A stretch of DNA of 58,692 bases, from NCBI GenBank assembly GCA_016930995.1, contig JAFGFQ010000151.1:1-58692 (forward strand), written 5' to 3'. Within the stretch, counting starts at the first letter, position 1, and each line of letters starts with the position of its first letter. The notes below the pieces were generated by a model. It had not been told where the DNA came from. It was given only the letters and a program-made list of their open reading frames with translations, and did not search any database. Position numbers and translations under genes: made by a program. The DNA is from Thermoplasmatota archaeon. Its GTDB lineage: Archaea > Thermoplasmatota > E2 > DHVEG-1. Below, piece by piece: positions 5 through 42,683 of this stretch.

Positions 5-912
5 ATGGGATCACTTACACCAGAAATACGGAAACGTATAATTAAAGCTTACAAAAAAGGATACCGCATCAAAGACATCGCATCTGTCTTTGGAGTCAGC
101 CGCTGGGTTATATGGAAATGGAGAAAACGAGCATACCACCGAGGAGTAGACAGTTATCGGAGTCGCTCCCGACGACCACATCATATCCATAAGAAGGTCA
201 ACCAGGAGATAGAGAACGCCATTGTTGTCCTCCGTGACTCATTCAACTGGGGAACTCATCGGATCGCTCTGAATCTTCACCATCCACCAGGATACATCCA
301 CCACCTTCTCACCGCTATCACTGGGAGCGAATGGCATCCAGTGCGAATCAGTCGACAGACAGTGAACACGATTCTGAGGAGACATCGACGGAATGGCTCC
401 CCCTATGAAAAGAATAAAAGAGAATGGAAATATTTCCGTGCACGAAAACCAAATGGCCTCTGGCAGATCGACATCAAAGGACCATTTCTTCTAGATGGAA
501 AACGACTCTACGCTCTAATCATCGTAGATGACCATTCACGATTCATCATCTATTGCAGGCTGTACACCTCGATTCGAAAGGAGGAGGCATCGCTGCCCTC
601 CACGAGGCAGTGAAACACTACGGCCATCCCAGACGACTTCTCTGCGACAATGGATCCCAATTTAAAAGCAACGACCTCAAATGCTGGTGTAAAACACACA
701 AAGTCCTCTATGAACCAGCACCTCCACATTATCCTGAGACTAAAGGGAAAGTCGAACGAGCGATTCGCAATCTCAAAGAAGAGTACCTTATCCTAGACAA
801 GGTATTTGAAAATGCATCGCTTCTTCTGGATGAATATATAGAATGGTTCAACAACGAGCGATATTCCCTAGGGGTCGAGGGAATACCTTCATCATTCTAT
901 TACGAATGTTAG
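5..912 (+). pseudogene. IS481-like DDE transposase, frameshifted
   Basis: Two overlapping reading frames (5-613 and 553-912) together make one IS481/IS3-type transposase of about 290 residues. The first holds the N-terminal helix-turn-helix (residues about 8-45, KGYRIKDIASVFGVSR) and the first catalytic Asp (WQIDIKG). The second holds the second Asp (CDNGSQF) and the Glu (KGKVERAIRNLKEEY). The frame changes by -1 within the purine-rich stretch around 575-590, where KEE in one frame meets GIAALHEA in the other. I see no strong slippery heptamer, so decay or a sequencing error is as likely as programmed frameshifting. The left end of the element lies outside or at the edge of the window and no terminal repeats could be defined. 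Confidence 0.8.
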
Positions 913-1235: not shown

Positions 1236-1622
1236 ATGAGTAAAAGAAATACCTATCTATATACGATGAGAGACCATTATAAGGTCGTACAATACGGGAT
1301 AACAAAAAATCCTGATGCTCGAGAATTTGATCATCGACGGGATGGAAAACGATTTACTAATATCACTTTCGATATGCAACCTAGAACTCGGGACAGCGCA
1401 AAAACAGAAGAAACAAGGCGGATCAATACATACAAATCCACTCACGACGGACGAAAACCAAGATATAATAAGATATTGAGGGCTTTGAATAACGTACTTG
1501 TATTTTTCACTTACTGTTTTTATTGTGAAAACAGTCTGAAAATGACTATTTTCACTCGTTCCTGGTTCTCAGGTTTCTGTTTTTCCAACCAATTTTCGTA
1601 TTCGTTATCTGGCTACCGCTAA
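1236..1622 (+). CDS. GIY-YIG-like small protein, 3' end hit by IS5 element
   Basis: Residues 1-81 form a compact domain: YLYTMRDHYKVVQYGITKNP resembles the paired GIY and YIG strands, followed by Arg/His-rich residues (AREFDHRRDG) and a Glu (AKTEETRR) in places where GIY-YIG-type proteins carry catalytic residues. This assignment is by eye. A strong ribosome site (GGGGGTG) precedes the ATG. The IS element begins at 1478, inside codon 81. Restoring the site by joining the single TATT copy to 2680 gives Leu then TAA, so the original protein had 81 residues. The present frame keeps residues 1-80 unchanged, reads Leu again at 81, and runs on for 47 IS-encoded residues. The gene is therefore nearly intact with a foreign hydrophobic tail. 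Confidence 0.55.
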   Translation: MSKRNTYLYTMRDHYKVVQYGITKNPDAREFDHRRDGKRFTNITFDMQPRTRDSAKTEETRRINTYKSTHDGRKPRYNKILRALNNVLVFFTYCFYCENSLKMTIFTRSWFSGFCFSNQFSYSLSGYR

Positions 1623-2675
1623 CGGCTTACGATCTAACGTGACCAATTGATACATATTGTACGCGAAACATTTGAACATCTCCTTGATGTGGACTCGTTC
1701 AAGTGTTTTGACCTGTGTTCGATCGCCTTTGAACACTCGTTTGATGACGCTGAACGGGCGTTCACCGGGTGCGCGTACTCTGCTGATTGCTTTGTTTCGT
1801 CTCTGTTCTCCCCCGTTCAATTTTCGTCCTCGGACTGCACGTTTCATTGTCTTATCAACTACACCTGGTGCGGTGAGTTGTTTGCCGAAATATCCTTTAT
1901 CCCGATAGACCGCCTGGTCTCCCTCCGTGACCAAGTCGATGTCACCATCATGTCGATTCGCTGATGTCGCATCATAGTCACGGATGAAATGATGGTCGAC
2001 ATCAATCTTGATGTGTGATTTGTATCCGTAGTGGACCTGCCCGTGTTTCACGCTGTATCCACCATTTTTATCCATGTGTTGAAGCTGTTTCTTGGTGTAC
2101 TCAACTGTTTTTCCCTGACGTCGTGCTCGTTTCTCCTGTTGGATGCGTTTTTTCCCTTGGTCTGCTTCGATGAAGCAGGCGTCTTGGATGACGCCTTTTT
2201 TGATCGTGTAGCCTTTGGAGTCCAGCTGCCGTTGCAGTTCATCCCAGATCTTTTCGTCCACCTTGGCTTCTTTCAGCCGGTCCCTGATTTTCCAGATGGT
2301 GGTGAAGTCAGGGATCTGGTCAGGGAAGCCGAGGAAGTTGCGGAAGCTGAGACGGTCAAGGCATTGGAATTCCAATTCAGGGTCTGAAAGTCCGTACCAT
2401 GCTTGAAGCAGCATGGAACGGACGACGATGAGTTCATCGGTGTGCGGGCGGCCACCGATGATTTCATTGTCATGGAAGACGCTTTTGACAAGTGGGATGA
2501 ATGGTTTCCAGTCGATCTGGTGTTTCATCAGTTCTAGTCGGTCGCCTAGGCCTTTGACTTTCTGGTAGTGTTGGTTTAAAATAAATCGGTCAAAACTCAT
2601 CCGTACCACTCCTGGTAATAGGTATGGTGAAGGAGCATTTAGAGGTTTGTACGGAGGGGGTTATTCAAAACCCTC
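1478..2675 (-). mobile_element. Complete IS5-family insertion sequence
   Basis: The ends are a 16-bp inverted repeat: GAGGGCTTTGAATAAC at 1478-1493 and the complement of GAGGGTTTTGAATAAC at 2660-2675 (15 of 16 identical). They are flanked by a 4-bp direct repeat, TATT at 1474-1477 and 2676-2679, as expected for an IS5 target duplication. The 1198-bp element holds one transposase gene on the minus strand. Intact ends, intact transposase and identical target repeats indicate a recent insertion. Confidence 0.9.
1605..2600 (-). CDS. IS5-family DDE transposase
   Basis: A full-length transposase of about 331 residues. The N-terminal DUF772-like region (residues about 30-110, with RPHTDELIVVRSMLLQAWYGLSDPELE and SFRNFLGF) precedes a DDE core: Asp in QDACFIEADQG, Asp in YRDKGYFG and Glu in RVRAPGERPFSVIKRVF. 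The ATG at 2600 follows AGGAGTGG; a GTG at 2609 is also possible. The C-terminus lies about 110 bp from the left inverted repeat. The gene is uninterrupted, so the element may be active. Confidence 0.9.
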   Translation of the reverse strand: MSFDRFILNQHYQKVKGLGDRLELMKHQIDWKPFIPLVKSVFHDNEIIGGRPHTDELIVVRSMLLQAWYGLSDPELEFQCLDRLSFRNFLGFPDQIPDFTTIWKIRDRLKEAKVDEKIWDELQRQLDSKGYTIKKGVIQDACFIEADQGKKRIQQEKRARRQGKTVEYTKKQLQHMDKNGGYSVKHGQVHYGYKSHIKIDVDHHFIRDYDATSANRHDGDIDLVTEGDQAVYRDKGYFGKQLTAPGVVDKTMKRAVRGRKLNGGEQRRNKAISRVRAPGERPFSVIKRVFKGDRTQVKTLERVHIKEMFKCFAYNMYQLVTLDRKPLAVAR

Positions 2676-3767: not shown

Positions 3768-6158
3768 TTATATCTTTAGAATTTCGGGGAGCAAATCGAT
3801 CTGAGTATACGTCAATACTATGATGTCCTGCGTCTTTGCACCTAGCATTTCCACGATGTCACTTTTTGCCTCTTGATCGTTGCAGATAATTACGATTCTA
3901 TCAGCCCATTTCGAATCCCGCTTTACATTGCGAAGGATCTGATTCTTGTCGTGCGACTTTCCGGTTTCAACCTCGATTGCAACCTTAACCTTCCCGTTTT
4001 CCGCCCTGACATCACAGCCTTTTTCCACTTCAACTTTCCATCCCCTCAGCACCGATGCTGCCTTGTCTTTTATAATGATGTGTTCGGTTTTCCCGTATTG
4101 CGGTGCCGTCTTCTCCGCCTCCCGGTCTACGTATCTAAAACCCCTTTCGGTTGGCCTGTAGACAATCTTTGGCCTGCCGGGTCCGTTTCTTACCTTTTCC
4201 TCTGATAATAGACCGTCTCTAACCAGTTTTTTCTTTATGTCGTAGCCTCGCCTCGTTTTTATCCCCAGAGTTTTTATCACTTCGGTCAACGGAGCGTTCG
4301 GTTTCTGAATTAATGCCTCGAGGAACTTTTTCTCGATGGGCTTTTCAAGTTCGGGGTTTACATAGGGTGCGGATTCTCCTGTGAACCGTCTCATCGTCTC
4401 TTCTATCCTGCAGTCAAGAACGAGCTTGGTGTCTGGCGGTGGTGGCATGTTTACTCTAAGCGGGAAGTTGACAGAAGGAATCTTGACGATTGCCTGCCCC
4501 GTACGCAGGTAGGACAGGGATTCAAGTTGTTCCTTTGTGAGGCCCCCCAGCGCGTCCCGGACGATTAGCTTGTCCCAAGTCTGCTCCTGCCTGAAGATTA
4601 TCTTTGTCGCCGTGTTTCGGACGACTTCCTCCCTGATACCCTGCGGAAGCTGGTAAGGACCTTGGTGAGAGCAGATAAGGCCCTGCCTGAACTTGCGTGC
4701 CTCGGAAAGCATCTTCCTTATGACCTCCAAATCCGCGTAGCGATAGAAATCGTCAAGGACGAGAACGTGCGGCGAGAGGTCGTCCATCCTGAGGCTGTCC
4801 CACCAGAGGATTAGGAACACGCAGGCAAAGAACATCCTCACCTCGGTAGGTAGCTGGTCTAGTTCAATGATGACGTTCCTTCTGCGGAGCTGCGGGAAGG
4901 AGAGGGAGGAATGGGAACGGTTGAAGATCCTGCCGTAGAAATCCTTGGTGAACTTGTCCAGCTTCAGCGTAAGCGCTTTCATGCCCTTGTCGGACATCAC
5001 CATGATTGCCTCACTGATGTTCGGGTCGTTCTTTCCAGTATAAAGCATGGCCAGCGACTGCCTGAGTCTTGCTTCCTGAATCTCACCGAGGATGAACATC
5101 TGTTTCATTAGCGATATGAAGTTTTCAATCCGTTCCCAGACGAGAACCTCCCGCGGTGCATTGGTCTCGAACAGCTCCAGCGGGTTTATGGAAAGGTTGC
5201 CCAGAAACGGGTTCAGAATGATTGTGTCGTCGCGCAGTTTCCCGTTCTGGTCGCCGGCGAGGTCCCGGTATTCGTTGTGCCAGTCAAGAATGCAGAACTT
5301 CATGCCGGTTTCCCGTATTTTGATAAGCAGGTTTTTCAGGAACGTCGTTTTTCCCGTTCCGCTGGCTCCCCAGACCGCCATGTGTTCAAGGAGTTTTTCT
5401 ACCTCGAGCCTGACGTAGTCTATTTCTCCGATCTTGAACTCCGCTGGCTCGCCCAGCTCTATGCCTGTGAATGGACCGCTGGGCATGGGAAACTTCATCT
5501 TTTTCACCTGCTCAATGCCGTAAGTCAGCGGTAACTGAAAATAAGCAATAGCGTGCTTCAGCTCGAGGAACGTGCTGTACGTTTGTTTACCTTTGAGAAG
5601 TTTTTTCAGGCCTTTTTTCGGGTTGGGATCCATGACCAAGTAAACGGAATTCTGATCGTAGATGGCTCCTATCAGTGATGTGGTTACAGCCACGTTTCTT
5701 CTTGTCTCAATATCGGAACCCCACAGGACGATTGAGAAGGACGTCTTGAACGGACAGTTGAGGTTCGGGGAATGGATCGGCTCGAACCTCGCAACCATGC
5801 AGGCTTTTATCCCCAAGTCAAGGTATTTGGAGACAAGCACGTCCACCTGGTTCTTTGCGACAAACGGGGTTCCCACGATGTGGATCAATGCGCTAGGTTT
5901 TTCGAGGTTTGGGAATTCCATCTCCTCGCATCCGCAGCCGTCAAGCATGCTTTTCATCAGCTCAATTTTTTCCCCTGCGACGTTTTTTCTGAGGAATGAC
6001 TTGTCCGAAACCGAGATGAAAACGTGCGTCTGTGCGTCGGCGATCACTGCCAGCTCTACGCCAACCGATGCCTTGTTCATCCGTCTCAGAAATTCGCTTG
6101 GGCTGAAGTCGTCGAGAGCCACAACTTTCAATGTCTTTTTCTGGAAGTTCTCTTTCAT
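3768..6158 (-). CDS. HerA/VirB4-like pump ATPase with wHTH and nuclease-like C-terminus
   Basis: A 796-residue protein of the HerA-FtsK superfamily (DUF87/VirB4/TraC-like). Residues 1-240 look like the divergent N-terminal domain of VirB4-type ATPases. Walker A is GASGTGKTT at 264-272, Walker B HVLVLDD at 464-470, and a sensor-like strand LICSHQG follows. Residues about 605-680 form a winged helix (TEVIKTLGIKTRRGYDIKKKLV, then GPGRPKIVYRPTERG). Residues about 697-790 resemble a PD-(D/E)XK domain (D716, then E729-V-E731), though the usual Lys is not obvious. The ATG at 6158 is chosen because it overlaps the preceding stop as ATGA; the frame is open further upstream without support. Last gene of the seven-gene Ubl operon. 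Inferred role: membrane-anchored DNA or protein pump. Confidence 0.8.
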   Translation of the reverse strand: MKENFQKKTLKVVALDDFSPSEFLRRMNKASVGVELAVIADAQTHVFISVSDKSFLRKNVAGEKIELMKSMLDGCGCEEMEFPNLEKPSALIHIVGTPFVAKNQVDVLVSKYLDLGIKACMVARFEPIHSPNLNCPFKTSFSIVLWGSDIETRRNVAVTTSLIGAIYDQNSVYLVMDPNPKKGLKKLLKGKQTYSTFLELKHAIAYFQLPLTYGIEQVKKMKFPMPSGPFTGIELGEPAEFKIGEIDYVRLEVEKLLEHMAVWGASGTGKTTFLKNLLIKIRETGMKFCILDWHNEYRDLAGDQNGKLRDDTIILNPFLGNLSINPLELFETNAPREVLVWERIENFISLMKQMFILGEIQEARLRQSLAMLYTGKNDPNISEAIMVMSDKGMKALTLKLDKFTKDFYGRIFNRSHSSLSFPQLRRRNVIIELDQLPTEVRMFFACVFLILWWDSLRMDDLSPHVLVLDDFYRYADLEVIRKMLSEARKFRQGLICSHQGPYQLPQGIREEVVRNTATKIIFRQEQTWDKLIVRDALGGLTKEQLESLSYLRTGQAIVKIPSVNFPLRVNMPPPPDTKLVLDCRIEETMRRFTGESAPYVNPELEKPIEKKFLEALIQKPNAPLTEVIKTLGIKTRRGYDIKKKLVRDGLLSEEKVRNGPGRPKIVYRPTERGFRYVDREAEKTAPQYGKTEHIIIKDKAASVLRGWKVEVEKGCDVRAENGKVKVAIEVETGKSHDKNQILRNVKRDSKWADRIVIICNDQEAKSDIVEMLGAKTQDIIVLTYTQIDLLPEILKI

Positions 6159-6352
6159 CTTCTCAGCCCTTTGATTGCACCGATCACCCAGATTATGAAC
6201 CCTGCACCGGCCATGCTGAAGAAAGCGGGAACGTAGGAGCGGTTCGTTGCGAACCAGATTGCCAGCATGATGAGGATGAAACATAGAACGACCGTCAGCA
6301 TCGTCGTGGCGTCCTGCATGACGCTTGGCGGCTCAATGATTCCTTGTTGCAT
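6155..6352 (-). CDS. Small two-TM membrane protein, coupled to pump ATPase
   Basis: A 65-residue protein with two predicted membrane segments, about residues 18-35 (MLTVVLCFILIMLAIWF) and 42-60 (VPAFFSMAGAGFIIWVIGA), and a basic end (KGLRR). It overlaps the upstream Ubl gene by 20 nt and the downstream ATPase gene by 4 nt (ATGA), so it is translated with both. Size, topology and position directly before a VirB4/HerA-like ATPase recall VirB3/TrbD of type IV secretion systems. That comparison rests on layout, not on sequence similarity. Confidence 0.65.
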   Translation of the reverse strand: MQQGIIEPPSVMQDATTMLTVVLCFILIMLAIWFATNRSYVPAFFSMAGAGFIIWVIGAIKGLRR

Positions 6353-6641
6353 CGTCCCACCTTTTACCGCTCAGTTTATTGAGAAAATTTTTAGATGCGA
6401 TATTTACGTGTTTTGGAACGAGAGAAAGCGTGTCGTTTTCCTTGATGCCACATTCTTTAAGCGATGCCTTGTCTCTGAGGATCATATCATCTTTAATTAG
6501 CATCGATACGTTTGAGGAGTCTGAGGGCAGAATCAGTTTCAGGAAAACCTGATTTTTTATACGTTTTATCGTGTCGTTTTCATCAGCCTCAATTTCCAAT
6601 TTTAGACCTAATCCCAAGATACTCGTTACGTATATTTTCAT
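6333..6641 (-). CDS. Stand-alone ubiquitin-like protein without Gly-Gly
   Basis: A 102-residue protein. Residues 1-77 read as a beta-grasp ubiquitin fold: MKIYVTSILGLGLKLEIEAD matches the first hairpin of ubiquitin, DTIKRIKNQV the helix, and ASLKECGIKENDTLSLVPK the last loop and strand (compare TLSDYNIQKESTLHLV of ubiquitin). A 25-residue tail follows and ends in TRNH, with no terminal Gly-Gly; the only Gly in the tail is G92 (LSGK). It could be trimmed by the operon's JAMM peptidase, or act without conjugation like YukD of type VII secretion. It lies between the two small membrane protein genes. The ATG follows an AGGAGG-like site (rc of cctcct at 6650-6655). Confidence 0.8.
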   Translation of the reverse strand: MKIYVTSILGLGLKLEIEADENDTIKRIKNQVFLKLILPSDSSNVSMLIKDDMILRDKASLKECGIKENDTLSLVPKHVNIASKNFLNKLSGKRWDDATRNH

Positions 6642-6676
6642 TTCAATACCTCCTGATTTTTAACACGTTCTTTGAA

Positions 6677-6895
6677 TTAGAAACGCCTCGTTGCATGTCC
6701 TCCTCCGTATGACCAGCATAGCACGGTTATAAGCAGGACGACTGCGAGGTAAGGGACGAAGACCGAAGCGAGAATGATGGCGGCGTAGAACAGCGGGTGG
6801 GGATAGCGGAGGATCCAGCCGCCCACCAATCCAAATGCTAAGATGGCCACCTGCAATCCCCGCCGGAACGAGTCGATGAGATTTACTTGCTGCAT
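6677..6895 (-). CDS. Small two-TM membrane protein within Ubl operon
   Basis: Starting at the ATG at 6895 gives 72 residues with two hydrophobic segments (about 13-28 VAILAFGLVGGWIL and 34-62 LFYAAIILASVFVPYLAVVLLITVLCW) and a basic tail (HATRRF). The frame is open further upstream but that part runs through the E1 gene in another frame and looks non-coding. The chosen start overlaps the E1 gene end by 13 nt, consistent with coupled translation. It starts MQQ like the 65-aa membrane protein, but otherwise the two are not clearly related. Perhaps a membrane partner of the ATPase, in the place of VirB2/TrbC; inferred from layout only. Confidence 0.65.
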   Translation of the reverse strand: MQQVNLIDSFRRGLQVAILAFGLVGGWILRYPHPLFYAAIILASVFVPYLAVVLLITVLCWSYGGGHATRRF

Positions 6896-7587
6896 AGTTT
6901 GCACCCCGGGTTGTGTTCGAGCCATACGGGTGAAGTCTTTCCCTGCTGAAGGTCGAAATAAAGCAACGGATGGGTCTCCTTCCCGAAGAGATGATTCAGG
7001 AGCTCGGCGACTTGTAGGTTCGCCGCGTATGATGCGACGAAGTAGGCGGTCGGTATCACCTGTTCGGAGCACCCGACACGCCTTTCCGTCTCTTTCATAA
7101 GCGCTGGCCAACATTCCATGCAAGAGGTTTTACCTGGCAGAACGAATCGCAGAGTTCCTGTGTAGTTCTCTATCCCCACGTCGATATACGGTTTTCCGCT
7201 GATGATTGCCTCATAGTTCAGGGCGAAACGTGCACCATGGTTGTCGAAATTGCCGAAGAATACGTCTGGGTCGAAGTAGTCGAATTCGACGTCCTGAACT
7301 TTCGCCGTTACACCGATTATGTTCGTATCGCTGAACTCAGCAATTATTTCCTTGAGGGCATTGACCTTGGTTTTCCCTATCTGGCTCCTGCGGTAGACTT
7401 GGTTGCCGATGTTGTGTTCCTCAAGAACATCCTTATCGATGACGATGATTTTTCCGACCCCGATGCGTGCGAGCGTCACAACCGCCTGGGAACCGGTGGC
7501 GCCGATGCCACCAATGAGGACTGTCGTTGCCCGCACTTTGTCCTTGTTCCAGCCATCAAGGAGCTCATGCCTGAACTGCGTCTTCAT
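6883..7587 (-). CDS. E1-like ThiF/MoeB-family activating enzyme
   Basis: A 234-residue E1-type adenylating enzyme. Nucleotide-binding loop LIGGIGATGS (24-33), acidic VIDKDVLEEHN (49-59), the NIGNQVYRR Arg-finger region (59-67), and paired zinc ligands C156-x2-C159 and C229-x2-C232 are all present. C173 (VGCSEQ) lies in the crossover region where thioester-forming E1 enzymes carry the catalytic Cys. The ATG at 7587 overlaps the JAB stop as ATGA; an upstream in-frame extension is not supported. Its substrate is inferred to be one of the two Ubl domains in the operon. A sulfur-transfer role (ThiS/MoaD-like) is the alternative, but the neighbouring E2 argues for conjugation. Confidence 0.85.
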   Translation of the reverse strand: MKTQFRHELLDGWNKDKVRATTVLIGGIGATGSQAVVTLARIGVGKIIVIDKDVLEEHNIGNQVYRRSQIGKTKVNALKEIIAEFSDTNIIGVTAKVQDVEFDYFDPDVFFGNFDNHGARFALNYEAIISGKPYIDVGIENYTGTLRFVLPGKTSCMECWPALMKETERRVGCSEQVIPTAYFVASYAANLQVAELLNHLFGKETHPLLYFDLQQGKTSPVWLEHNPGCKLCSK

Positions 7588-8123
7588 GGTTCCACCCCGA
7601 CGAGAAACCCATGCGGCAGCTGCTTGGCTTTTCCCTCCTCGATACGGTAGAATCTGAAGCATACCCCGTCCGGCATGAACGGGTTCATAACCAGAGCGAC
7701 GGCATCGGAAAAGAGCGCCTGGAAACCTTTCTGAGTCCTCTGGTCTGGCTCGGACATAAATACGGGAACGCTGCCGACGTGCGAATGTGCAAGTCCGACC
7801 ACGTAATTCCCGTCATCGATTTCCGATGCTTCGTTGAAAAACTGCGTGCCTACGGATGCACTAATCGGAGTCGCTTTTAAATCCTCGCAGCAGTGCGCGC
7901 CCTTGACTAATAGGTAAGTACCGCATATGGTTCCCCTGAGGAGGCTTGTACCTTCAACATTGCCTTTGCTCACGAAGAACTTGAACAGCTTTGCGATGAC
8001 GTCGGGGTCGACGAGGACCATGTTCGTCTTGACCTGGTTTGCCAGAGCCTTTTTCGTCACGACCTGTGGAATGAATTCCATTGTTTCGGAGAATACGTTT
8101 TTTACTAGGGTGGATACTCTCAT
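7584..8123 (-). CDS. JAB/JAMM (MPN) metalloprotease, deubiquitinase-like
   Basis: A 179-residue JAB-domain protein from the ATG at 8123, which overlaps the E2 stop as ATGA. The zinc signature is visible as AHSHVGSVPVFMSEPD: H-x-H followed by eight residues and S-x2-D, one residue more than the usual seven. The partner Glu is probably that of NVEGTSLLRG, before the strand TICGTYLL. Known JAMM proteins of this kind cleave Ubl tails or isopeptide bonds. Here it would mature or remove one of the operon's Ubl proteins. No membrane or targeting segments. Position between E2 and E1 genes makes a role in the conjugation cycle likely. Confidence 0.82.
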   Translation of the reverse strand: MRVSTLVKNVFSETMEFIPQVVTKKALANQVKTNMVLVDPDVIAKLFKFFVSKGNVEGTSLLRGTICGTYLLVKGAHCCEDLKATPISASVGTQFFNEASEIDDGNYVVGLAHSHVGSVPVFMSEPDQRTQKGFQALFSDAVALVMNPFMPDGVCFRFYRIEEGKAKQLPHGFLVGVEP

Positions 8124-8869
8124 GGAACCGGCCTCCTCAGGGAACGGATGACCCTTTCCATCCATCCTGAGCCCTGATCATCCTTGTAAAAATTCCTGCT
8201 CATCGCGGGTCGTTGCTGCCATTCGTGCCAGTGCGGGTGATCCATCACGTAGACGAGGTCGTCATAGATGCTTGCGAGCGTCCGAGTCGGCCGCCAGCTC
8301 TCGTCGTTTAGCGTGGAAAGGCACACCCAACCAGTTGTGTCAGGAAATATGTTCGGGTGGACGGGTGATAGGCTCGTGGTCCAGATGATGTGGGGCATTT
8401 TTTGCGGGTATTTTCTTGAAAGTTTTATCTCAACAGTGGAGCTCTGACCTCTCCACAAACCGGTTCCAGCCACCTTTGCGGTCCAGTTGAGTGGATCGTT
8501 GAGATCCATCGCCAGCGGCAGATGCCTGACCCGGATGATTCTTGCCTCCCATGCGAGACGCTTCTTGATATGTTCGGGCAGTTCGTTTTTCTTTCCAAAG
8601 CTGAAAGAAAAAGAGGAAGTGGGGTATGCCCCCACTATCCTGTATGAAGGAACAATCTCTAGGGTATCGGCATCCTTTATCCCTACATCCTTCACACGTT
8701 GGTTGTTTTCAAGTGGTCGACCTTTGTAACTAAGGCATAGACCGTTGGAGTCGGTTATGCCTTGGTCGGCGCACGCCTTGTTTAGCAGCGTGCCAATAGC
8801 GTCCGTCGGTTCGCAATCAATCGTTACTGGTGTTGCGAGACCAACATCTGATCTAATTATTATTTTCAT
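8120..8869 (-). CDS. Ubiquitin-like domain fused to E2 conjugating enzyme
   Basis: A 249-residue fusion. Residues 1-77 form a second ubiquitin-like domain (MKIIIRSDVG at the N-terminus, SYKGRPLENNQRVKDVGI, then DADTLEIVPS). Residues about 98-225 are a UBC/E2 domain with the full eukaryote-like active-site signature: HPNI at 171-174, GWVCLSTL at 180-187 with C183 as the expected thioester Cys, then W192-R-P and the TLASIYDDLVYVMDHP helix. This is much closer to eukaryotic E2 than to divergent bacterial versions, judging by motifs. First gene of the operon; AGGTG lies 5 nt before the ATG. The Ubl part may dock E1 or be a cis-encoded modifier; no Gly-Gly at the junction. Confidence 0.85.
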   Translation of the reverse strand: MKIIIRSDVGLATPVTIDCEPTDAIGTLLNKACADQGITDSNGLCLSYKGRPLENNQRVKDVGIKDADTLEIVPSYRIVGAYPTSSFSFSFGKKNELPEHIKKRLAWEARIIRVRHLPLAMDLNDPLNWTAKVAGTGLWRGQSSTVEIKLSRKYPQKMPHIIWTTSLSPVHPNIFPDTTGWVCLSTLNDESWRPTRTLASIYDDLVYVMDHPHWHEWQQRPAMSRNFYKDDQGSGWMERVIRSLRRPVP

Positions 8870-8938: not shown

Positions 8939-9152
8939 TCGTCAGTCTGAAAAAAAGAAAAAAAGAGGGGAGAAACAGGCTTTGCAAAATCAAAAGTGGT
9001 CAAAACTGAAAACTTTCGGTGAAAATCCTTCCCGGGGACTGGGTCACATTCGGCCGGGCCCATCTTTTCATCATCTTTTCTGGAGAAAATCAGGGACGTA
9101 TGAGGAATTTTCCTCGTTAATACCTCACTTTGAGGAATCCCAAATTTTAAAA
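8939..9152 (+). promoter_or_regulatory. Intergenic region and aminotransferase promoter
   Basis: Part of a 316-bp gene-free stretch between two divergent genes. Its right end carries an inverted repeat GAGGAA-TT-TTCCTC (9102-9115), a second copy of TGAGGAAT about 20 nt on, and a TATA-like TTTTAAAATA just before 9153, some 35-40 nt before the aminotransferase ATG. An Lrp-type regulator would fit such a site, but no regulator is identified. A 97-codon minus-strand frame (9174-8881) overlaps all of this and has no protein-like features, so I do not call it. Confidence 0.4.
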
Positions 9153-9185: not shown

Positions 9186-10433
9186 ATGGTAGTTAATTAC
9201 GACCGTTTATTCTCAAATCGATCAAAAAACCTAAAATCCTCTGAGATTCGAGAGTTATTAAAACTTACCCAGAGTCCGGGTTTCATCTCTCTTGCAGGAG
9301 GGTTGCCGAATCCACAGGCGTTTCCGGTTGACGTCATCCATGAATGTATTGAGAAGGTGTTTAAGACCAACATTCATAATGCGTTGCAGTATGGGACGAC
9401 TGAGGGATTACCTCTCTTAAGGAACGTTATTGCACAGAGAATGAGGGAGAAAAAAGGTATCGATTGTGAACTTCATGATATCCTGATTACCGGGGGTGCT
9501 CAGCAGGCGTTATCTTTTATTGCCTTTAACTTATTAGACCCGGGTGATACGTATATCACCAGTGCACCAACCTACCTTGGGGCGTTGCAAGCATTTCATG
9601 CGTATCAGGGGAACTGTGAATGCATCCCGATGAACGATGAAGGCATTGATATCGATTCGCTGCGGCGGAACCTGAAAAGACTTCATAGGACCGGCATTAC
9701 CCCAAAATTCCTCTATGCTGTTGCCACATTCCAGAATCCCTCCGGTGAAAGCATCTCGCTTGAGCATCGAAAAGAACTCCTTGAGATTGCTTCGGAATAT
9801 GATTTTGTCATCGTGGAAGACGATCCCTATGGGGAGCTTGTTTTTGAAGGAAAGCCAATTCCCTCAATCAAATCACTAGACACGAAAGGTCGTGTCATCT
9901 ATATTGGAACATTCTCAAAGGTGCTTGCCCCAGGGTTCCGACTTGCCTGGGTGATCGCCTCTGAGGAGATCATCAACAGATTCTCTCTTACCAAGCAATC
10001 CAGTGACCTTTGCTCTAATATGTTTGTCCAATATATCGCCTATGAATATATCAAGGGTGGATATCTGGATATTCAGATTGAGCATATTAAAAAAATGTAT
10101 AAACACAAACGCGACGTCATGTTAAAAGCACTTAAGGAATATTTCCCTAAAGAAGCAAAATGGACGGTCCCTGGTGGTGGGATGTTCCTCTGGGTAACGT
10201 TGCCGAAAACGATTAACACGCGGCTGATGTTTAAAAGGGCAGTTGCAAAAAAGGTTGCATACGTGGTCGGTGATGCGTTCTACCCAGATAGCAGCAATTA
10301 TAATTCAATGCGTCTGAACTTCTCATATTCTGATGATGAGACGATTCGAGAGGGCGTCAAGCGTCTTGCAGAGGTTATTAAAGAAGAAATGGTGACTCCC
10401 TATGATAAAGATGAATATGTCAGTGGTGTATAA
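9186..10433 (+). CDS. PLP-dependent aminotransferase (2-aminoadipate/aromatic type)
   Basis: A 415-residue fold-type I aminotransferase of the LysN/Aro8/MocR-C-terminal group. Visible marks are SLAGGLPNPQAFP near the N-terminus, the substrate/cofactor motif YGTTEGLP, LITGGAQQAL, TFQNPSG, the Asp in VIVEDDPYGEL, and the Schiff-base Lys in IGTFSKVLAPGFRLAW. C-terminal GGGMFLWVTLP and MRLNFSYS fit the same group. Close relatives transaminate 2-aminoadipate, aromatic or branched-chain amino acids; the substrate cannot be read directly. A 2-aminoadipate role would suit the lysine catabolism operon at 34-38 kb. It is transcribed alone, divergent from the Ubl operon. Confidence 0.8.
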   Translation: MVVNYDRLFSNRSKNLKSSEIRELLKLTQSPGFISLAGGLPNPQAFPVDVIHECIEKVFKTNIHNALQYGTTEGLPLLRNVIAQRMREKKGIDCELHDILITGGAQQALSFIAFNLLDPGDTYITSAPTYLGALQAFHAYQGNCECIPMNDEGIDIDSLRRNLKRLHRTGITPKFLYAVATFQNPSGESISLEHRKELLEIASEYDFVIVEDDPYGELVFEGKPIPSIKSLDTKGRVIYIGTFSKVLAPGFRLAWVIASEEIINRFSLTKQSSDLCSNMFVQYIAYEYIKGGYLDIQIEHIKKMYKHKRDVMLKALKEYFPKEAKWTVPGGGMFLWVTLPKTINTRLMFKRAVAKKVAYVVGDAFYPDSSNYNSMRLNFSYSDDETIREGVKRLAEVIKEEMVTPYDKDEYVSGV

Positions 10434-32430: not shown

Positions 32431-34083
32431 ATGCCACAAGATATTTACGATAAAATCATGATGGTCGCAAAAAGGAGAGGGTTTATCTATCCGTCATTTG
32501 AAATCTATGGTGGTATCGCAGGATTCTATGATTACGGACCACTCGGCTCTCAACTGAAAAACAACGTTGAGAATCTCTGGAGACGTTTCTTTCTCCTCCA
32601 GGACAATTGCATCGAGATAAGCACTCCAACGATCACTTTATATGAGGTATTACAAGCCTCTGGGCATGTGGAGGAATTCACGGATCTCACTGTTGACTGC
32701 AGTCGTTGTAAACGGTCCTATAAGGTCGAGGACATCATTGAAAAAGGTGTTTCCCTTGAGCAAGCGGTTAAAGGTAATAAAATCATCTGTCCGACCTGCA
32801 AAACCGACTTACATGATGCCCATCCTGTAAACCTGATGTTTTCAACAACGATTGGCATCGGGGACGGAAGAAGAGCGTTCCTTCGTCCAGAGACCGCACA
32901 AGGAATTTTTACCAATTTCCATCTGCTCTATCAATACAGCCGGAAGAAACTGCCGTTCGGGGTCGTTCAAATCGGGAAAGGGTACCGCAATGAGATCTCT
33001 CCGAGACAAGGAACTCTCCGTCAACGTGAGTTCTCCATGGCCGAGGCAGAAATCTTCTTCGACCCTAAAGATAAGACCCATCCACGTTTTGATGCGATAC
33101 AGGTCAATCATCTCATCCTCTTTGATAATGAGAAAGAATGGAATATTTCGGTTGCCGATGCGGTGAAAAAAAAGATCATCAACAACCAAGCATTAGCCTA
33201 TTATATGTATCTGACCCAAGAGTTCCTCTTCACTGCAGGGGTGGACCAGAAGAAGTTCCGATTCCGTAAACATGCAGATGACGAACTTGCACACTATGCA
33301 ACCGAATGCTGGGATGCAGAACTACGTAGTGAACGGTTCGGGTGGGTGGAATGTGTCGGGATCGCCGACCGGTCCGCCTATGACCTTAATGCCCATATCG
33401 TCTCCTCTGGTGTTGATATGTACGCACTGCGTGTCTTTGAACAGCCTCAAGAAGTGACGGTTAAAAAAATCATCCCAAAGATGAACATCCTTGGACCACG
33501 GTTCGGAGGCAAAGCAGGGAAAATCAAAGACCAGCTAGAGCAGCTCAACGCAAACTCTGTTAAGACCATCACCATGACAATCGATGGGGAATCAATTGAT
33601 ATCCCAAAAGAGTGTTATGACATCGTTACGGTAAAAGAAAAGCAAATCGGGGAGAAATTCGTCCCCCATGTTATCGAACCATCCTTCGGGATTGATCGGG
33701 TTCTCTATTTCCTCCTTGAGCATAATTATGTTGAGGGAAAGAAAAAGGAGGAAGACTATACCATGCTCCAGCTCAATCCTCTGGTAGCACCTATCAAAAC
33801 CGGAATCTTCCCGCTGATTAGCGATGACGCTCTCATCGGCATCGCAAAGGAAATCAACGATGCTTTAAGGAAAGAAGGGATCGCAACCTTTTATGATGAG
33901 AGCGGGACCATTGGGCGACGTTACGCACGCATGGATGAAATTGGTACTCCTTTCTGTCTCACTGTTGATCATGATTCATTACACGACAAAAAGGTCACCA
34001 TCAGGGATCGCGATACGACCAAGCAAGAGAGAATCCAGATACAAGACGTTATCACCTATCTGAAGACGAGGATATCGTACTAA
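32431..34083 (+). CDS. glyS: Glycyl-tRNA synthetase (archaeal/eukaryotic dimer type)
   Basis: 550 residues, class IIa. Class II motif 1 is near YDYGPLGSQLKNNVENLWRRFF, motif 2 in QIGKGYRNEISPRQGTLRQREFSMAEAEIFF, and motif 3 in EPSFGIDRVLYFLLE. A zinc-binding insertion CSRCKRSYKV...CPTC occurs near residues 90-130. The C-terminal anticodon-binding domain spans about 440-550. ATG follows AGGAGATTTTCACTG. Confidence 0.97.
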   Translation: MPQDIYDKIMMVAKRRGFIYPSFEIYGGIAGFYDYGPLGSQLKNNVENLWRRFFLLQDNCIEISTPTITLYEVLQASGHVEEFTDLTVDCSRCKRSYKVEDIIEKGVSLEQAVKGNKIICPTCKTDLHDAHPVNLMFSTTIGIGDGRRAFLRPETAQGIFTNFHLLYQYSRKKLPFGVVQIGKGYRNEISPRQGTLRQREFSMAEAEIFFDPKDKTHPRFDAIQVNHLILFDNEKEWNISVADAVKKKIINNQALAYYMYLTQEFLFTAGVDQKKFRFRKHADDELAHYATECWDAELRSERFGWVECVGIADRSAYDLNAHIVSSGVDMYALRVFEQPQEVTVKKIIPKMNILGPRFGGKAGKIKDQLEQLNANSVKTITMTIDGESIDIPKECYDIVTVKEKQIGEKFVPHVIEPSFGIDRVLYFLLEHNYVEGKKKEEDYTMLQLNPLVAPIKTGIFPLISDDALIGIAKEINDALRKEGIATFYDESGTIGRRYARMDEIGTPFCLTVDHDSLHDKKVTIRDRDTTKQERIQIQDVITYLKTRISY

Positions 34084-38346: not shown

Positions 38347-40359
38347 CTATGTTAGTCCGATGCTGGATATCTCACTGAGATCCATAAGGTTGTTCAGTTT
38401 CACCATGGAATCTGAGATGGTATAAAGGACGTCCCCGATGAATAGGGATCGAGTAATATCGGTGTTGGAGGCACCCCAGTACCAGTAGTAGTCATCCGAG
38501 TGTTGCATCTGCTCTTGGGTCTGATGGGTGATTCGCCCCTGATATTCAAAGCCTTTCTCAAGACTGAGATGATAGACATACGCCCCTTGGAAGGCAAAGG
38601 TACCAAAGAGCGCTTCGGTGCCCTCGCTTGCGATATACCGGTCTTTGACCTCCTGGGTAATCTCATAGAGGCTGAGAGGGACGACCAGGAGCTCTTTTTC
38701 ACGGTCGAAGAGGAACGCCTTATGGTCATACAAGGCTGGGCTATCCGTGCCACGATCGCCGATGACGATTTTTGCTTGTTCCACCGGGTTGTTGATGTCG
38801 CTGACATCAAATAATGCTATCTTTAACCCGAGGATAGCTGTATAGTAGACAGCTCCTGGTGTATGAATCTTGTCATCATCGATGGTCGGATCGACTTCTT
38901 TTCCGATGCCGATGATATGGGTTTCATCATACGGATGGAGGTACTCTGAGTAACCTGGAATTTTCAGCTCACCAAGGATCTGCGGGTTGTACGGATCTGA
39001 TAAATCAATGGTGAAAAGCGGGTCCACCTGGACGAAAGTCACAAGGTACGCACGATCCCCAAGGAACCGGGCGGCATAGATGGATTCACCAGGTGCGATG
39101 TTCTCAATTTCGGAGACCTGTTTGAGGTTCTCATCAAGGATGTAGATGTTGTTGCTAGTCTGGGAGCCTTCCCCCCAATTGTTCCCTGAGGTGGTCGCGA
39201 TCCTGAAGAACCCATTATGCTCATCCATAGAGAACTGGTTTAGGATATGACCCGGAACCTCGCCTTGTGCGATATAGGCGACTGCACCGGTGTCAATGGA
39301 GATCTTATGAAGGATTGTGGCCTCCTGGGTATCTGTTGACACAGAAGTGTCCCCCTGGAACAGGGTGGAATAAAAGGGGTAATGGAGGGAGGCAAGGAAG
39401 ATGTTGTGTTTCGACACATACATGGTCTGGGAGCTACCCAGCATGAAACTTTTCTCCACTACCTCGTTAGTGTCAAGGTTCAAGGAAATCACATGTGTCA
39501 TGGTATCGGAAAGCTCCGGGACATCCACGTAATAAATATCATCCGCTGAGATGTTTTCGCTGACGTTATCGACACGGATCTTTGGGACATTCAGGGTGAA
39601 GTTCTTCTCATCAAGTGCATAGTAAATATGATAGGTATACTCGGTTGCGACCACATAGACGTATTCATCGATGAGACGGGCATCGAAGTACCCACCATCA
39701 ATCCGTATTTCCTTTACCAAGGATGGATTGAGGTGATCAGTGAGATCGTACACAGCGATAACGGTCTGCGAAACACCACCCCACCAGAGACCTGGGCGAG
39801 TCATCTCTCCACCCATATCATCCTCAAGAAGAGGATAGCCATAAAAACCACCAGAGTTGCCAAAGATGACAAGGCGATCCCCACGGATGAAGATGTTACT
39901 GACGCTGACATCCTGTATTTTAATAGTGGATAGAATTGCTGCCTCAAACACCGGGTACGCACGTAGAATATAAATGGTTTGGTTTGCGACAACATACAGA
40001 TAGGTCCCATCGGTTTTCACAATGTCAGGCTCATCAACACCTGCGACCTGCACGTTCGTCGTTGAATAGGAAGGAGGCGCCTCACCACCTAACGATCCAT
40101 CATTTGCTGCGCCTGACTCGGATTTGGAAAACAAGACAGAATATGAATCGTAATACCGTCCTTGACTCCCTGCTGATTCAAATCGTTCCTGCAGAAAGGA
40201 GAACAGTTCATCATAGGAGTCGAAGGTATTCAGCTTATACGTATAGGCTCCTTGATCAAGGGGCGAAAAAACGATGAGTGCCGCAAGGCTTGTACAAATC
40301 AGCAGAGCCACTACGATTATTCCTGTTAATTGTTTGGTTTTCTTTTCCATAACGATCAC
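38347..40359 (-). CDS. Secreted beta-propeller domain protein
   Basis: 670 residues with an N-terminal membrane anchor or signal (LTGIIVVALLICTSLAALIVFSPL) and a large beta-propeller domain of the Beta_propel (PF09826-type) family. Family marks are TTNVQVAGVDEPDIVKTDGTYLYVVANQTIYIL, DLTDHLNPSLVKEIRIDGGYFDARLIDEYVYVVAT, LGDRAYLVTFVQVDPLFTIDLSDPYNPQILGELKIPGYSEYLHPYDETHIIGIG, and a C-terminal GDVLYTISDSMVKLNNLMDL. Cell-surface protein of unknown ligand. Paralog of the next gene, with a shared promoter element. Confidence 0.85.
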   Translation of the reverse strand: MIVMEKKTKQLTGIIVVALLICTSLAALIVFSPLDQGAYTYKLNTFDSYDELFSFLQERFESAGSQGRYYDSYSVLFSKSESGAANDGSLGGEAPPSYSTTNVQVAGVDEPDIVKTDGTYLYVVANQTIYILRAYPVFEAAILSTIKIQDVSVSNIFIRGDRLVIFGNSGGFYGYPLLEDDMGGEMTRPGLWWGGVSQTVIAVYDLTDHLNPSLVKEIRIDGGYFDARLIDEYVYVVATEYTYHIYYALDEKNFTLNVPKIRVDNVSENISADDIYYVDVPELSDTMTHVISLNLDTNEVVEKSFMLGSSQTMYVSKHNIFLASLHYPFYSTLFQGDTSVSTDTQEATILHKISIDTGAVAYIAQGEVPGHILNQFSMDEHNGFFRIATTSGNNWGEGSQTSNNIYILDENLKQVSEIENIAPGESIYAARFLGDRAYLVTFVQVDPLFTIDLSDPYNPQILGELKIPGYSEYLHPYDETHIIGIGKEVDPTIDDDKIHTPGAVYYTAILGLKIALFDVSDINNPVEQAKIVIGDRGTDSPALYDHKAFLFDREKELLVVPLSLYEITQEVKDRYIASEGTEALFGTFAFQGAYVYHLSLEKGFEYQGRITHQTQEQMQHSDDYYWYWGASNTDITRSLFIGDVLYTISDSMVKLNNLMDLSEISSIGLT

Positions 40360-40398
40360 ACCATTTACAAAGATTATTTCCTGTTATATCTGTTGAAG

Positions 40399-40435
40399 TT
40401 TATATAGTGTCTGAAAACGTTTGGCAAAAACCAAA
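40399..40435 (-). promoter_or_regulatory. Promoter element shared by the two propeller genes, copy 1
   Basis: On the minus strand a TATA element (CACTATATAAA) follows an inverted repeat, GTTTGG and CCAAAC with a short spacer, 12 nt upstream. The whole 37-nt block matches the block at 42722-42758 in 36 of 37 positions. It ends about 40 nt before the gene start, so the TATA box is properly placed. The repeat may bind a common activator or repressor. Confidence 0.7.
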
Positions 40436-40580
40436 CAGCATAGAATCCTATCTGCCCACCCGTTTATGTAAGATTTGGAGATTTATCGGATAAAAAAAGA
40501 TGATAAGAGATGAGAGAGGAGGAAAGGAGGAAGAAAACGAGTATGAAATAGGTTCCTCTCTCATGGTTCTTTTCTGCTCT

Positions 40581-42683
40581 TTATGAGACAAGAAGTATGC
40601 TGTTGAGTTCGTCAAGACTCACTAGGTCGTTCATCTTCACCATGTTCTCCGAGATGGTATAAAGCACGTCATTGATGAAAACGGTCCGCTGAATCGAGTT
40701 GGCAGAGGTCCCCCAGTAATACATTGGGTCTTTCTGGGTTGATTCATAGTCATGGGTAATCACCCCTTTCAAAGAGAGACCATCTTTAAGAGAGATAGTA
40801 AAGACATACGCTGACTGTTGTGACCAGTTGCCAGCGGGGATGACCAGCAGATTTTTTTCTTTGTCAAAGAGAAACGCTTTATGCTCGTAGAGCGCAGTGG
40901 ACTCGGTCCACCAGTAGTCTTCCTTTTCTTTATTCTCAATGACGTACACGGAAAGTTCCGTAGGGGAACTCATCTCCGAAATGTCGTAAAGCGAGATTTT
41001 CACGCTGCTGTCATTTCTGCCTATTCCGATCATATGCGTCTGGTCGTACGGGTGCAGGTAGGTTGAATACCCAGGAATCTTCAACTCACCAAGCAACTGA
41101 GGTGTTGTCGGGTCGCCAAGGTCAATAACCAAGAAGGGATCGGTTTGCTTGAAGGTGACCACATAGCAGAGCGGGCCGACGAACCTTGTAGCATAGATAC
41201 TTTCTCCACTCTCCGGGGTGATGTCTTCAAGGCTGCTGATGATGGTCAACTCCATGTCCAAGACATACACGTTTGTCTCAGGGGAGAAACTTCCGAAGAT
41301 GTAACTGACTGAGCTTCCCTGCATCGTGGTTGTGACACGTAAATACCCGTTGTACTCATCAAGGGAGAACTGATTGTTGATGTACCCTGGGACGCTACCT
41401 TGCGTCATATATGTAATCTCTCCATTGTTTATCTGGAGACGGTGGATAATGGTCTGTTCAGTCTGTCTGACGAGATCGCGGAGAATCTCTTCCTTCTGAC
41501 TCTCAGACATGGATTCCGACGCATAGTTCTGCAGGATCCAGAAGGTAATTTCTTGTTTCTGGTACTCCTGCAGGTCAAAGGTTTGAACAGACTGCAGTTG
41601 CTCTCTGATACGATCTGGGAGAATCGGTATGATGATGTCATCAAGTAGCCCTTGGAGCTGGGTATAGTCATAATAGGACCAGGTCGAGTACGTGATGTAA
41701 ATATTATCCTCAGAGACATAGACGATCTGGCTGGTGCCAAGCAAATAAGTCTTCGCATGGACAAGCTCCTCGTCATTGTGGATGTTCACCGAGATGATGT
41801 TCGTCAGCGTGCTGCTTTTCTCCGGGCTGTCCACATAGTAGATGTCTGCCAAGGGGATATCCAGTGGCTGTTGATCAACAGTGACACGTGGTACGATGGA
41901 GACCGTATCATCAAGGGTCTGGGTGTTGTAGGTGTACTGGGTGGTGATGACGTAGATATAGTCTCCGATGAGCCGAGCGTTTGAGAAGTACCCACCGATG
42001 ATGATTTCCTTTATCTCTTCAGGGGTGTTGATGTTGGTAAGGTCAAAAATCTTGATGTAGGTGTCCGGGGAGCTGTACCAAGGAACGAAGGACATGTCGC
42101 CTTCTTTTTTTGTCGCATCACTGCTGTACTCGTAGAGGAGAGGATAGTTGATGAACGATTGAGCAAACACCACCAGTCGTGTCCCGTCTACGAAGATGTT
42201 CTGTATGGTCAGGTTTTCAGCAACGGTGATGGTTGTCTCGATGCTTGCGTTTACTACGGGGGTCGCCCTGATGATAATAACCTTATTAGCGGTGACGATG
42301 TACAAGAACGTCCCATCGGTTTTGACGATATCAGGTTCGTCCACCCCAGCGACCTGGATGTTTGTCTTTGAAAAATCAACGATCTGGCCACCAGAGGCAT
42401 CCTTCTCCAAGGAAGCGAGTCCATCTCCAGATGAATCGGGACCTGGTTGATTCGACGGGACGATGTTACCCCGATAGTTGCTGTTCATCATATTCTCATT
42501 GCTCGCTTGGAGGAACGAGGTGAGCGCATGGTACGAATCGAAGTTTTTTACGTCATAGGTTGTCGTTGTTATCGGACCTGCGTGCTGAAACATCACCACA
42601 TAGGATACACCAGCGATGAGGAGGAGTGACACCAGCATGATTCCTACCGCTTGATATTGTTGTTTTTTGTTCATAGTCTTCAC
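40581..42683 (-). CDS. Secreted beta-propeller domain protein, larger paralog
   Basis: 700 residues, same plan as the 670-residue neighbour: N-terminal membrane segment (AVGIMLVSLLLIAGVSYVVMF), then the propeller with TNIQVAGVDEPDIVKTDGTFLYIVTANKVIII, LLGELKIPGYSTYLHPYDQTHMIGIG and INDVLYTISENMVKMNDLV. It carries an extra insert of about 60 residues around 330-400 (helical, with many Gln and Glu) that the paralog lacks. Own promoter with the duplicated 37-nt element. Function unknown; tandem duplication clear. Confidence 0.85.
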   Translation of the reverse strand: MKTMNKKQQYQAVGIMLVSLLLIAGVSYVVMFQHAGPITTTTYDVKNFDSYHALTSFLQASNENMMNSNYRGNIVPSNQPGPDSSGDGLASLEKDASGGQIVDFSKTNIQVAGVDEPDIVKTDGTFLYIVTANKVIIIRATPVVNASIETTITVAENLTIQNIFVDGTRLVVFAQSFINYPLLYEYSSDATKKEGDMSFVPWYSSPDTYIKIFDLTNINTPEEIKEIIIGGYFSNARLIGDYIYVITTQYTYNTQTLDDTVSIVPRVTVDQQPLDIPLADIYYVDSPEKSSTLTNIISVNIHNDEELVHAKTYLLGTSQIVYVSEDNIYITYSTWSYYDYTQLQGLLDDIIIPILPDRIREQLQSVQTFDLQEYQKQEITFWILQNYASESMSESQKEEILRDLVRQTEQTIIHRLQINNGEITYMTQGSVPGYINNQFSLDEYNGYLRVTTTMQGSSVSYIFGSFSPETNVYVLDMELTIISSLEDITPESGESIYATRFVGPLCYVVTFKQTDPFLVIDLGDPTTPQLLGELKIPGYSTYLHPYDQTHMIGIGRNDSSVKISLYDISEMSSPTELSVYVIENKEKEDYWWTESTALYEHKAFLFDKEKNLLVIPAGNWSQQSAYVFTISLKDGLSLKGVITHDYESTQKDPMYYWGTSANSIQRTVFINDVLYTISENMVKMNDLVSLDELNSILLVS

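What the first reader, a model, noticed from the sequence alone, without database searches (positions are those of the whole stretch)
3768..8869. Seven-gene operon: complete ubiquitin-like conjugation set coupled to a HerA/VirB4-like membrane pump
On one strand, with overlaps at nearly every junction, lie Ubl-E2, JAMM peptidase, E1, two-TM protein, free Ubl, two-TM protein and pump ATPase. E1, E2, JAMM and Ubl genes alone would already match bacterial Bil-type or Caldiarchaeum-type ubiquitin-like sets. The combination with a HerA/VirB4-like motor and two small membrane proteins, including an Ubl placed between the membrane genes, suggests that modification is tied to transport, as in type VII secretion where the Ubl YukD pairs with an FtsK-type ATPase. 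By eye the region is richer in G and C than its flanks and adjoins IS elements, so it may be imported. I do not know of a described system with this exact layout.
Basis: partly seen in the sequence, partly recalled or inferred. Interest (0 to 1): 0.95.

Follow-up and report, generated by a model that had tools for sequence, protein, structure and literature searches.

The report
Ubiquitin-like switch on VirB4-type pump
In some archaea the genes of a ubiquitin-like protein-tagging pathway lie in one cluster with a VirB4-like motor gene and two small membrane-protein genes, and relatives have swapped one half for another while keeping both together, so the tagging likely controls a predicted DNA pump in the membrane.

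Summary
The seven-gene operon is real: Ubl-E2 fusion, JAMM, E1, small membrane protein TM1, free Ubl, small membrane protein TM2, ATPase; five of six junctions overlap. The host is a Thermoplasmatota archaeon and the operon lies in a lineage-specific island. In held genomes, 6 of 6 further loci with the full-length motor have E1 and small membrane genes directly upstream. Two motor lineages and two E1 lineages occur in all four combinations; TM2 or its counterpart follows the motor. Shorter motor relatives without Ubl genes also exist. The ATPase is closer to VirB4/CedD than to HerA, though HerA models match too. The likely modifier is the Ubl fused to E2: its end reads [VI]G in 17, GG in 4 and GA, GS or GW in 4 of 25 fusions; 33 of 33 motor-less sets have a Ubl separate from E2 with GG at its end. 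The free Ubl lacks this. Best reading: a Ubl cascade that regulates a VirB4-type membrane DNA translocase. Substrate and cargo are unknown; defence is the main rival. My searches found no description in print.

The parts
8120..8869 (-). Ubl-E2 fusion (249 aa): N-terminal Ubl, residues 1-80 ending Val-Gly, flexible linker, E2 domain with HPN 171-173 and Cys183
   Evidence: Pfam UQ_con 1.5e-13, ubiquitin 1.1e-8; HPN and C183 invariant in A4 and HPN...C in 24 of 24 E2s scanned; model resembles UBC9/UbcH7 and Caldiarchaeum ubiquitin; residues 77-93 pLDDT < 50
7584..8123 (-). JAMM-type metallopeptidase (179 aa); H-S-H-x8-S-x2-D, one residue longer than the usual x7
   Evidence: weak Prok-JAB 0.07 in the window, clear in L032 and L033; E, HxH, S and D align
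6883..7587 (-). E1-like adenylyltransferase (234 aa) with candidate catalytic Cys and two CxxC pairs
   Evidence: ThiF 7.3e-32 (longer ORF); Cys in 11 of 11 aligned E1s
6677..6895 (-). TM1, small membrane protein (72 aa)
   Evidence: hydropathy; relatives at L032, L034, L084, L085, L086
6333..6641 (-). free Ubl (102 aa) without Gly-Gly or Val-Gly at the ubiquitin-end position
   Evidence: Pfam ubiquitin 5.4e-7; junction alignment
6155..6352 (-). TM2, small membrane protein (65 aa, two hydrophobic segments)
   Evidence: hydropathy; relatives at L032, L084, L085, all with motor type A
3768..6158 (-). VirB4/CedD-like motor ATPase (796 aa): N-terminal domain about 1-215, ATPase about 225-580, winged helix plus endonuclease-like region about 600-796
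   Evidence: CedD 6.1e-24, VirB4_CagE 6.8e-16; AlphaFold2 mean pLDDT 86.7; fold searches; C-terminal part
9129..9137 (.). right border of the island: DNA similarity to eight close relatives ends here
   Evidence: blastn against 8 relatives
1605..2609 (-). DDE transposase beside the operon, inside the island
   Evidence: PF05598 5.7e-19, PF01609 2e-16

Best explanation
The operon joins genes for a ubiquitin-like cascade (Ubl-E2 fusion, JAMM peptidase, E1) to genes for a VirB4/CedD-like ATPase and two small membrane proteins, and the cascade likely tags the motor or its membrane partners to switch a predicted DNA translocase. Shown: gene content; recurrence with variations at six other loci; swapping of motor and E1 lineages with the coupling kept; co-segregation of TM2/TMc with the motor; conservation of E2, E1 and JAMM active-site residues; a conserved Gly at the Ubl/E2 junction. 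Inferred, in order: JAMM cuts after that Gly and frees the Ubl (Val-Gly end in the window, Gly-Gly in some relatives) from E2; E1 adenylates it and hands it to E2 Cys183; E2 places it on a lysine of the motor complex, with JAMM as eraser; the free Ubl without Gly is a non-covalent adaptor; TM1 and TM2 anchor the motor ring to the membrane, as VirB3 or the TM segments of CedB/CedD do; the winged-helix/endonuclease-like end handles DNA. Whether the pump serves DNA exchange, spread of an element or expulsion of foreign DNA is open.
For: 6 of 6 further full-length-motor loci in held genomes have E1 and small membrane genes directly upstream. Motor lineages A (window, L084, L085) and B (L086, L033, L034), E1 lineages 1 (window, L032, L084, L033, L034) and 2 (L085, L086): all four pairings occur; TM2 goes with A, TMc with B. 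CedD is the best NCBIfam model (25 of 25 members of A2), VirB4_CagE 24 of 25; R388 TrwK/VirB4 is Foldseek's first hit (4e-19) and aligns 466-526 residues including the N-terminal domain, against 293-332 for HerA chains. Fusion junction [VI]G 17, GG 4, GA 2, GS 1, GW 1 of 25; 33 of 33 motor-less sets have GG at or within six residues of the end of a Ubl not fused to E2. Precedents seen in passages: CsRpn11 (JAMM) cuts CsUb precursor after Gly-Gly (PMC6043591); UFM1 leaves Val-Gly on its targets (PMC9638016); CedB/CedD have VirB4-like N-terminal domains and CedD is needed for DNA import (PMC11868833).
Against: No VirB6-like channel, pilin or relaxase is recognised in the operon, and the host genome is not held. 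Motor relatives without Ubl genes exist: L088-L090, and viral contig L082. HerA models match 25 of 25 motors too, with lower scores; HerA chain 4d2i is close behind TrwK in Foldseek (4e-18), and the long TrwK alignments have rmsd about 16 A. PADLOC's mad8 matches the motor at 2.6e-22 and a SIR2-like gene lies beside L033, which favour defence. The window's Ubl ends VG not GG and its JAMM spacing is unusual, so cleavage is uncertain. In L085/L086 neither the E2-position nor the JAMM-position protein has a Pfam match, and the former shows no E2 signal. TM1/TM2 have no supported Pfam match.
Confidence: 0.5

Rival explanations
1. Antiviral defence: the cascade modifies a viral protein or the motor on infection, and the membrane-bound motor with its endonuclease-like end attacks or expels invading DNA, comparable to Bil or CBASS cassettes joined to a HerA-type effector.
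For: PADLOC mad8 2.6e-22 and HerA models to 6e-12; PADLOC E1-E2 model 4e-17 with the E1; SIR2-like gene next to L033; patchy, island-borne distribution.
Against: NCBIfam scores CedD and VirB4 above HerA_antiphage; no recognised effector in the operon; PADLOC E2 models match only at 0.012; SIR2 seen at one locus only, though I did not survey all flanks.
Confidence: 0.27
2. Part of a mobile element: the motor moves the element between cells and the Ubl cascade overcomes or marks recipient or host proteins.
For: Island with transposases and a sharp border; T4SS-class motor; weak similarity of the C-terminal region of L033/L034 to Replic_Relax, and of the Ubl-less L089 motor to MobC.
Against: No integrase of the element, relaxase or replication gene recognised next to the operon, and no convincing end repeats; no plasmid match for E2 and one remote phage match for the motor. 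The island's left end is outside the window.
Confidence: 0.13
3. Protein export of the type VII kind, with the Ubl as tag or assembly factor of exported proteins, as the first reader proposed for YukD.
For: YukD is a Ubl beside an FtsK-type pump (PMC1779556 passages).
Confidence: 0.07
4. Chance neighbours: an ordinary Ubl set beside an unrelated motor.
For: 33 motor-less Ubl sets exist in the phylum and Ubl-less motors exist.
Against: Recurrence at seven loci over motor identities down to 17%, with re-paired lineages.
Confidence: 0.02

Closest known systems
Ced/Ted DNA-exchange systems of Crenarchaea (CedA, A1, A2, B, D, E)
   Same: Motor ATPase of the VirB4/CedB/CedD kind and two-TM small proteins
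   Different: No CedA-like polytopic channel recognised in the operon; TM parts are separate genes; Ubl cascade attached; extra winged-helix/endonuclease-like end
Caldiarchaeum subterraneum ubiquitin operon (CsUb, E1, E2, RING E3, CsRpn11)
   Same: Ubl, E1, E2 and JAMM; Ubl fold matches CsUb
   Different: Ubl fused to E2; no RING match; coupled to a membrane motor
Bacterial Bil (BilABCD) and CBASS type II E1-E2/JAB cassettes
   Same: E1, E2 and JAB working on a partner system
   Different: Single Ubl domain fused to E2 instead of a two-domain BilA; E1 separate from E2; partner is a VirB4-class motor
HerA-type antiphage systems (SIR2-HerA, DUF4297-HerA)
   Same: ATPase core of the same superfamily
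   Different: Longer N-terminal domain like VirB4, membrane partners and Ubl cascade; no SIR2/DUF4297 match in the operon
Type VII secretion with YukD
   Same: A Ubl gene beside a pump ATPase
   Different: YukD is reported as not conjugated (passage); here there is a full E1/E2/JAMM set; no WXG100

Membership tests
Type IV secretion / Ced-Ted system | VirB4/CedB/CedD-type ATPase with VirB4-like N-terminal domain | tested here: met
   CedD best model, 25 of 25; TrwK/VirB4 first Foldseek hit and longest alignments. All NCBIfam scores lie far below the curated cut-offs, so it is a relative, not a member of those models.
Type IV secretion / Ced-Ted system | VirB6/CedA-like channel and VirB2/CedA1-like pilin | tested here: inconclusive
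   None recognised in the operon; whole genome not held; pilins diverge beyond sequence recognition (passage)
Type IV secretion / Ced-Ted system | Transfers DNA between cells | not testable with these tools
   needs an experiment
Caldiarchaeum-type ubiquitin operon | Ubl, E1, E2 and JAMM together | tested here: met
Caldiarchaeum-type ubiquitin operon | RING E3 in the operon | tested here: not met
   no RING match in the seven proteins
Bil (BilABCD) | BilA with two Ubl domains, separate BilB E2 | tested here: not met
   one Ubl domain, fused to E2; BilA description from a passage
HerA-type antiphage systems | HerA_antiphage-type ATPase with SIR2, DUF4297 or similar effector gene | tested here: inconclusive
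   HerA_antiphage 7.6e-8, cut-off not reached; mad8 2.6e-22; no effector match in the operon, a SIR2-like gene near L033 only
Type VII secretion | WXG100 substrates in the operon | tested here: not met
   no match among the seven proteins
Type VII secretion | EccC/FtsK-type ATPase | tested here: inconclusive

The most novel reading that the evidence does not exclude
A type IV-secretion-class DNA pump governed by its own eukaryote-like ubiquitin cascade: the modifier is made as a fusion to its E2, released by JAMM with a Val-Gly or Gly-Gly end as in UFM1 or ubiquitin, and attached to the membrane-bound motor; archaea have re-paired two enzyme cassettes with two motor types in all combinations.
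Probability: 0.35. Interest if true: 0.93.

Novelty: categorically new. Interest (0 to 1): 0.82.

Why it matters
Each part belongs to a known superfamily, but no system is known to me, or was found in the searches, in which an E1/E2/JAMM cascade belongs to a VirB4-class motor. If the reading holds, ubiquitin-like modification controls membrane DNA traffic in archaea, which bears on how ubiquitin signalling arose and spread before eukaryotes. It would be a compact, testable system whose natural substrate is likely encoded in the same operon, and it would place a Val-Gly-ended modifier outside the UFM1 family.

Tried and rejected
HerA proper and FtsK/EccC identity of the motor: considered. HerA chains and models match well (Foldseek 4e-18; NCBIfam HerA models 25 of 25), but VirB4/CedD score better and align more of the chain; EccC is row 50. 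E2 nature of the L085/L086 E2-position protein: hhalign probability 0.5%, no Pfam match (L085) or NCBIfam match, and one database hit, identical to the query; left open. The JAMM-position proteins of L085/L086 have no Pfam match and no profile hit; only the motif residues align. Link between the about 290-aa protein of the Ubl-less modules and the motor's N-terminal domain: none by profile. N-terminal domains of the two motor lineages: probability 51%, E 1.5e-4, 173 columns. TM1/TM2 as VirB2, VirB3 or a holin: no supported Pfam match. Plasmids (E2): none; phages (motor): one remote match. IMG/VR: no E2 relative, two remote motor relatives from a capped list; in L082 the iterated profile also finds the motor, with no Ubl gene seen in its 21.6 kb. 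Attachment repeats: none convincing. Single origin of the coupling: not decided (2 changes, 1 not excluded; long branches).

Dropped or partial: P0018 (no Ubl part) from the junction count. Of 45 genomes with E2 hits I fetched 40 regions from 39; G006, G023, G024, G169 and G366 were not fetched, G001 is seen as L001. Loci L035, L038, L051 and L058 were left out of the 33 motor-less sets because one search showed no three Ubl-system genes there. Two short TM2 profile hits inside JAMM ORFs of L041 and L046 were taken as spurious. G226 was left out of the border comparison (its aminotransferase lies at a contig start). The motor search scored only the 7,995 best candidates and two candidates per genome, so counts there are lower bounds.
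Full report
WHAT IS THERE. The minus strand from 8869 to 3768 carries seven genes in tight order: Ubl-E2, JAMM, E1, TM1, free Ubl, TM2, motor ATPase. Five of six junctions overlap. Domains were checked with Pfam and, for Ubl-E2 and motor, with predicted structures. The E2 part resembles UBC9 and UbcH7 and the Ubl part Caldiarchaeum ubiquitin; HPN and the catalytic-type Cys occur in 24 of 24 E2s scanned, L085/L086 not included. The candidate E1 Cys is present in 11 of 11 aligned E1s; JAMM Glu and HxH align in 10 of 10 and Ser/Asp in 9 of 9 rows that reach so far, with one extra residue in the window's HxH-to-Ser spacing.

WHERE IT LIES. The glycyl-tRNA synthetase at 32431-34083 is 84% identical to those of G103, G244 and G089 (85% to G226 over 521 residues), in the class of the genome behind L001, a record named Candidatus Thermoplasmatota archaeon. 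The aminotransferase at 9186-10433 is 90-93% identical in nine close relatives. In the eight whose upstream DNA I fetched, similarity to the window stops at 9129-9137, and neither motor, E1, E2, methyltransferase nor transposase gave a tblastn hit at 1e-8 in the stretches held (for L103, L104 and L105 only 1.9, 2.6 and 3.2 kb to the left). In that class 4 of 80 genomes have an E2 hit at 1e-12, two of them partial. GC is 50.4% against 44.0%, though another stretch reaches 50.1%. The operon therefore sits in a lineage-specific, probably acquired island of at least 9.1 kb whose left end is outside the window.

THE COUPLING. The motor family is sharply bounded: 31 homologues besides the query at E <= 1e-10, of which 30 at 6e-123 or better and one at 3e-14 (only the best 7,995 candidates were scored). 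In 389 held genomes of the phylum the motor profile gave 10 places in 7 genomes at 1e-40. Six loci in four genomes are of the full-length type: L032 (cut by a contig end), L033, L034, L084 (contig begins inside the JAMM gene), L085, L086. All six have an E1 gene and small membrane genes directly upstream. A JAMM gene is found by profile in four (partly in L084); in L085/L086 only the motif residues of the gene in that place align. A recognisable Ubl-E2 fusion is present in three (L032, L033, L034), L084 is cut off before it, and L085/L086 carry an unproved E2-position protein. Against this, three genomes (G074, G188, G150; L088-L090) and the viral contig L082 have motor relatives without Ubl genes in view; in L088-L090 a small membrane protein again lies upstream. 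A further motor piece of G197 (L087) sits at a contig end with its upstream side unseen. In the protein database three E2/motor pairs share the same longest-contig length (39,231; 5,702; 6,129), which suggests linkage there too (inference).

PARTNER SWAPPING. Motors form lineage A (window, L084, L085) and lineage B (L086, L033, L034), split 100/100 and 17-21% identical across. E1s form lineage 1 (window, L032, L084, L033, L034; support 99/96) and lineage 2 (L085, L086; 49% identical to each other, 18-24% to the rest). All pairings occur: A1 window and L084, B1 L033 and L034, A2 L085, B2 L086. TM2 is found with motor A (window, L032, L084, L085) and another two-TM protein, TMc, with motor B (L033, L034, L086); TM1 is found by profile at six of seven loci, L033 having other small TM ORFs. 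Halves that are exchanged yet stay together are hard to explain unless they work together. Caveats: long branches in the E1 tree, few loci, and one or two origins of the coupling undecided.

THE MODIFIER. 33 of 33 motor-less sets have a Ubl not fused to E2 with GG at or within six residues of its end; in three of them the Ubl is the end of a protein of 355-377 aa. In the fusions the same place reads [VI]G in 17, GG in 4 (P0021, L033, L034, L086), GA in 2, GS in 1 and GW in 1 of 25, followed by a linker of low model confidence; the L085/L086 rows rest on an uncertain alignment. The three free Ubls seen keep neither GG nor VG (L033 has a single Gly). Since CsRpn11 cuts its precursor after Gly-Gly and UFM1 leaves Val-Gly, I propose that the fused Ubl is the modifier and JAMM frees it; a permanently tethered Ubl is the alternative.

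VERDICT. Observation confirmed; interpretation partly supported. Regulation of a VirB4-class DNA translocase by a Ubl cascade is my best reading (0.5); defence is the main rival (0.27). Literature: full-text searches of open-licence PubMed Central papers, of which I saw listings, starts of abstracts and, for PMC1779556, PMC9905601, PMC11354881, PMC9638016, PMC6043591 and PMC11868833, passages; none showed such a system. Subscription papers were not searched. Descriptions of Bil beyond, of CBASS cassettes and of VirB3 are partly recalled.

Noticed in passing
L036, L037, L039-L050, L052-L057, L059-L071: 33 loci of the phylum carry Ubl/E2/JAMM/E1 sets of three or four genes without a motor in view; eukaryote-like Ubl sets seem common in Thermoplasmatota. 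In L042, L043 and L045 the JAMM ORF is 629-884 aa long.
   Followed up: partly
L088:8916-11935, L089:7078-10140, L090:7204-10269: Ubl-less modules: small membrane protein, about 290-aa protein without Pfam match (L088 tested), and a TrwB/CedD-like ATPase.
   Followed up: partly
L033:7447-8589: SIR2-like gene just upstream of the Ubl-E2/motor operon (SIR2_2 1.1e-10).
   Followed up: no
L084:3584-4012; P0031 C-terminal end: A 142-aa ORF behind the L084 motor resembles, by eye, the C-terminal extension of the 888-aa motor P0031; other motors of 888-891 aa (P0028, P0030, P0037) may carry it too.
   Followed up: no
window 5-912: rve-type transposase split over two overlapping ORFs in different frames.
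   Followed up: no
window 43029-43634: Cas4/PD-(D/E)XK-type nuclease gene (PF01930 7e-10); surroundings not examined for CRISPR.
   Followed up: no
window 38347-42683: Two neighbouring proteins of 670 and 700 aa, both beta-propeller family PF09826.
   Followed up: no
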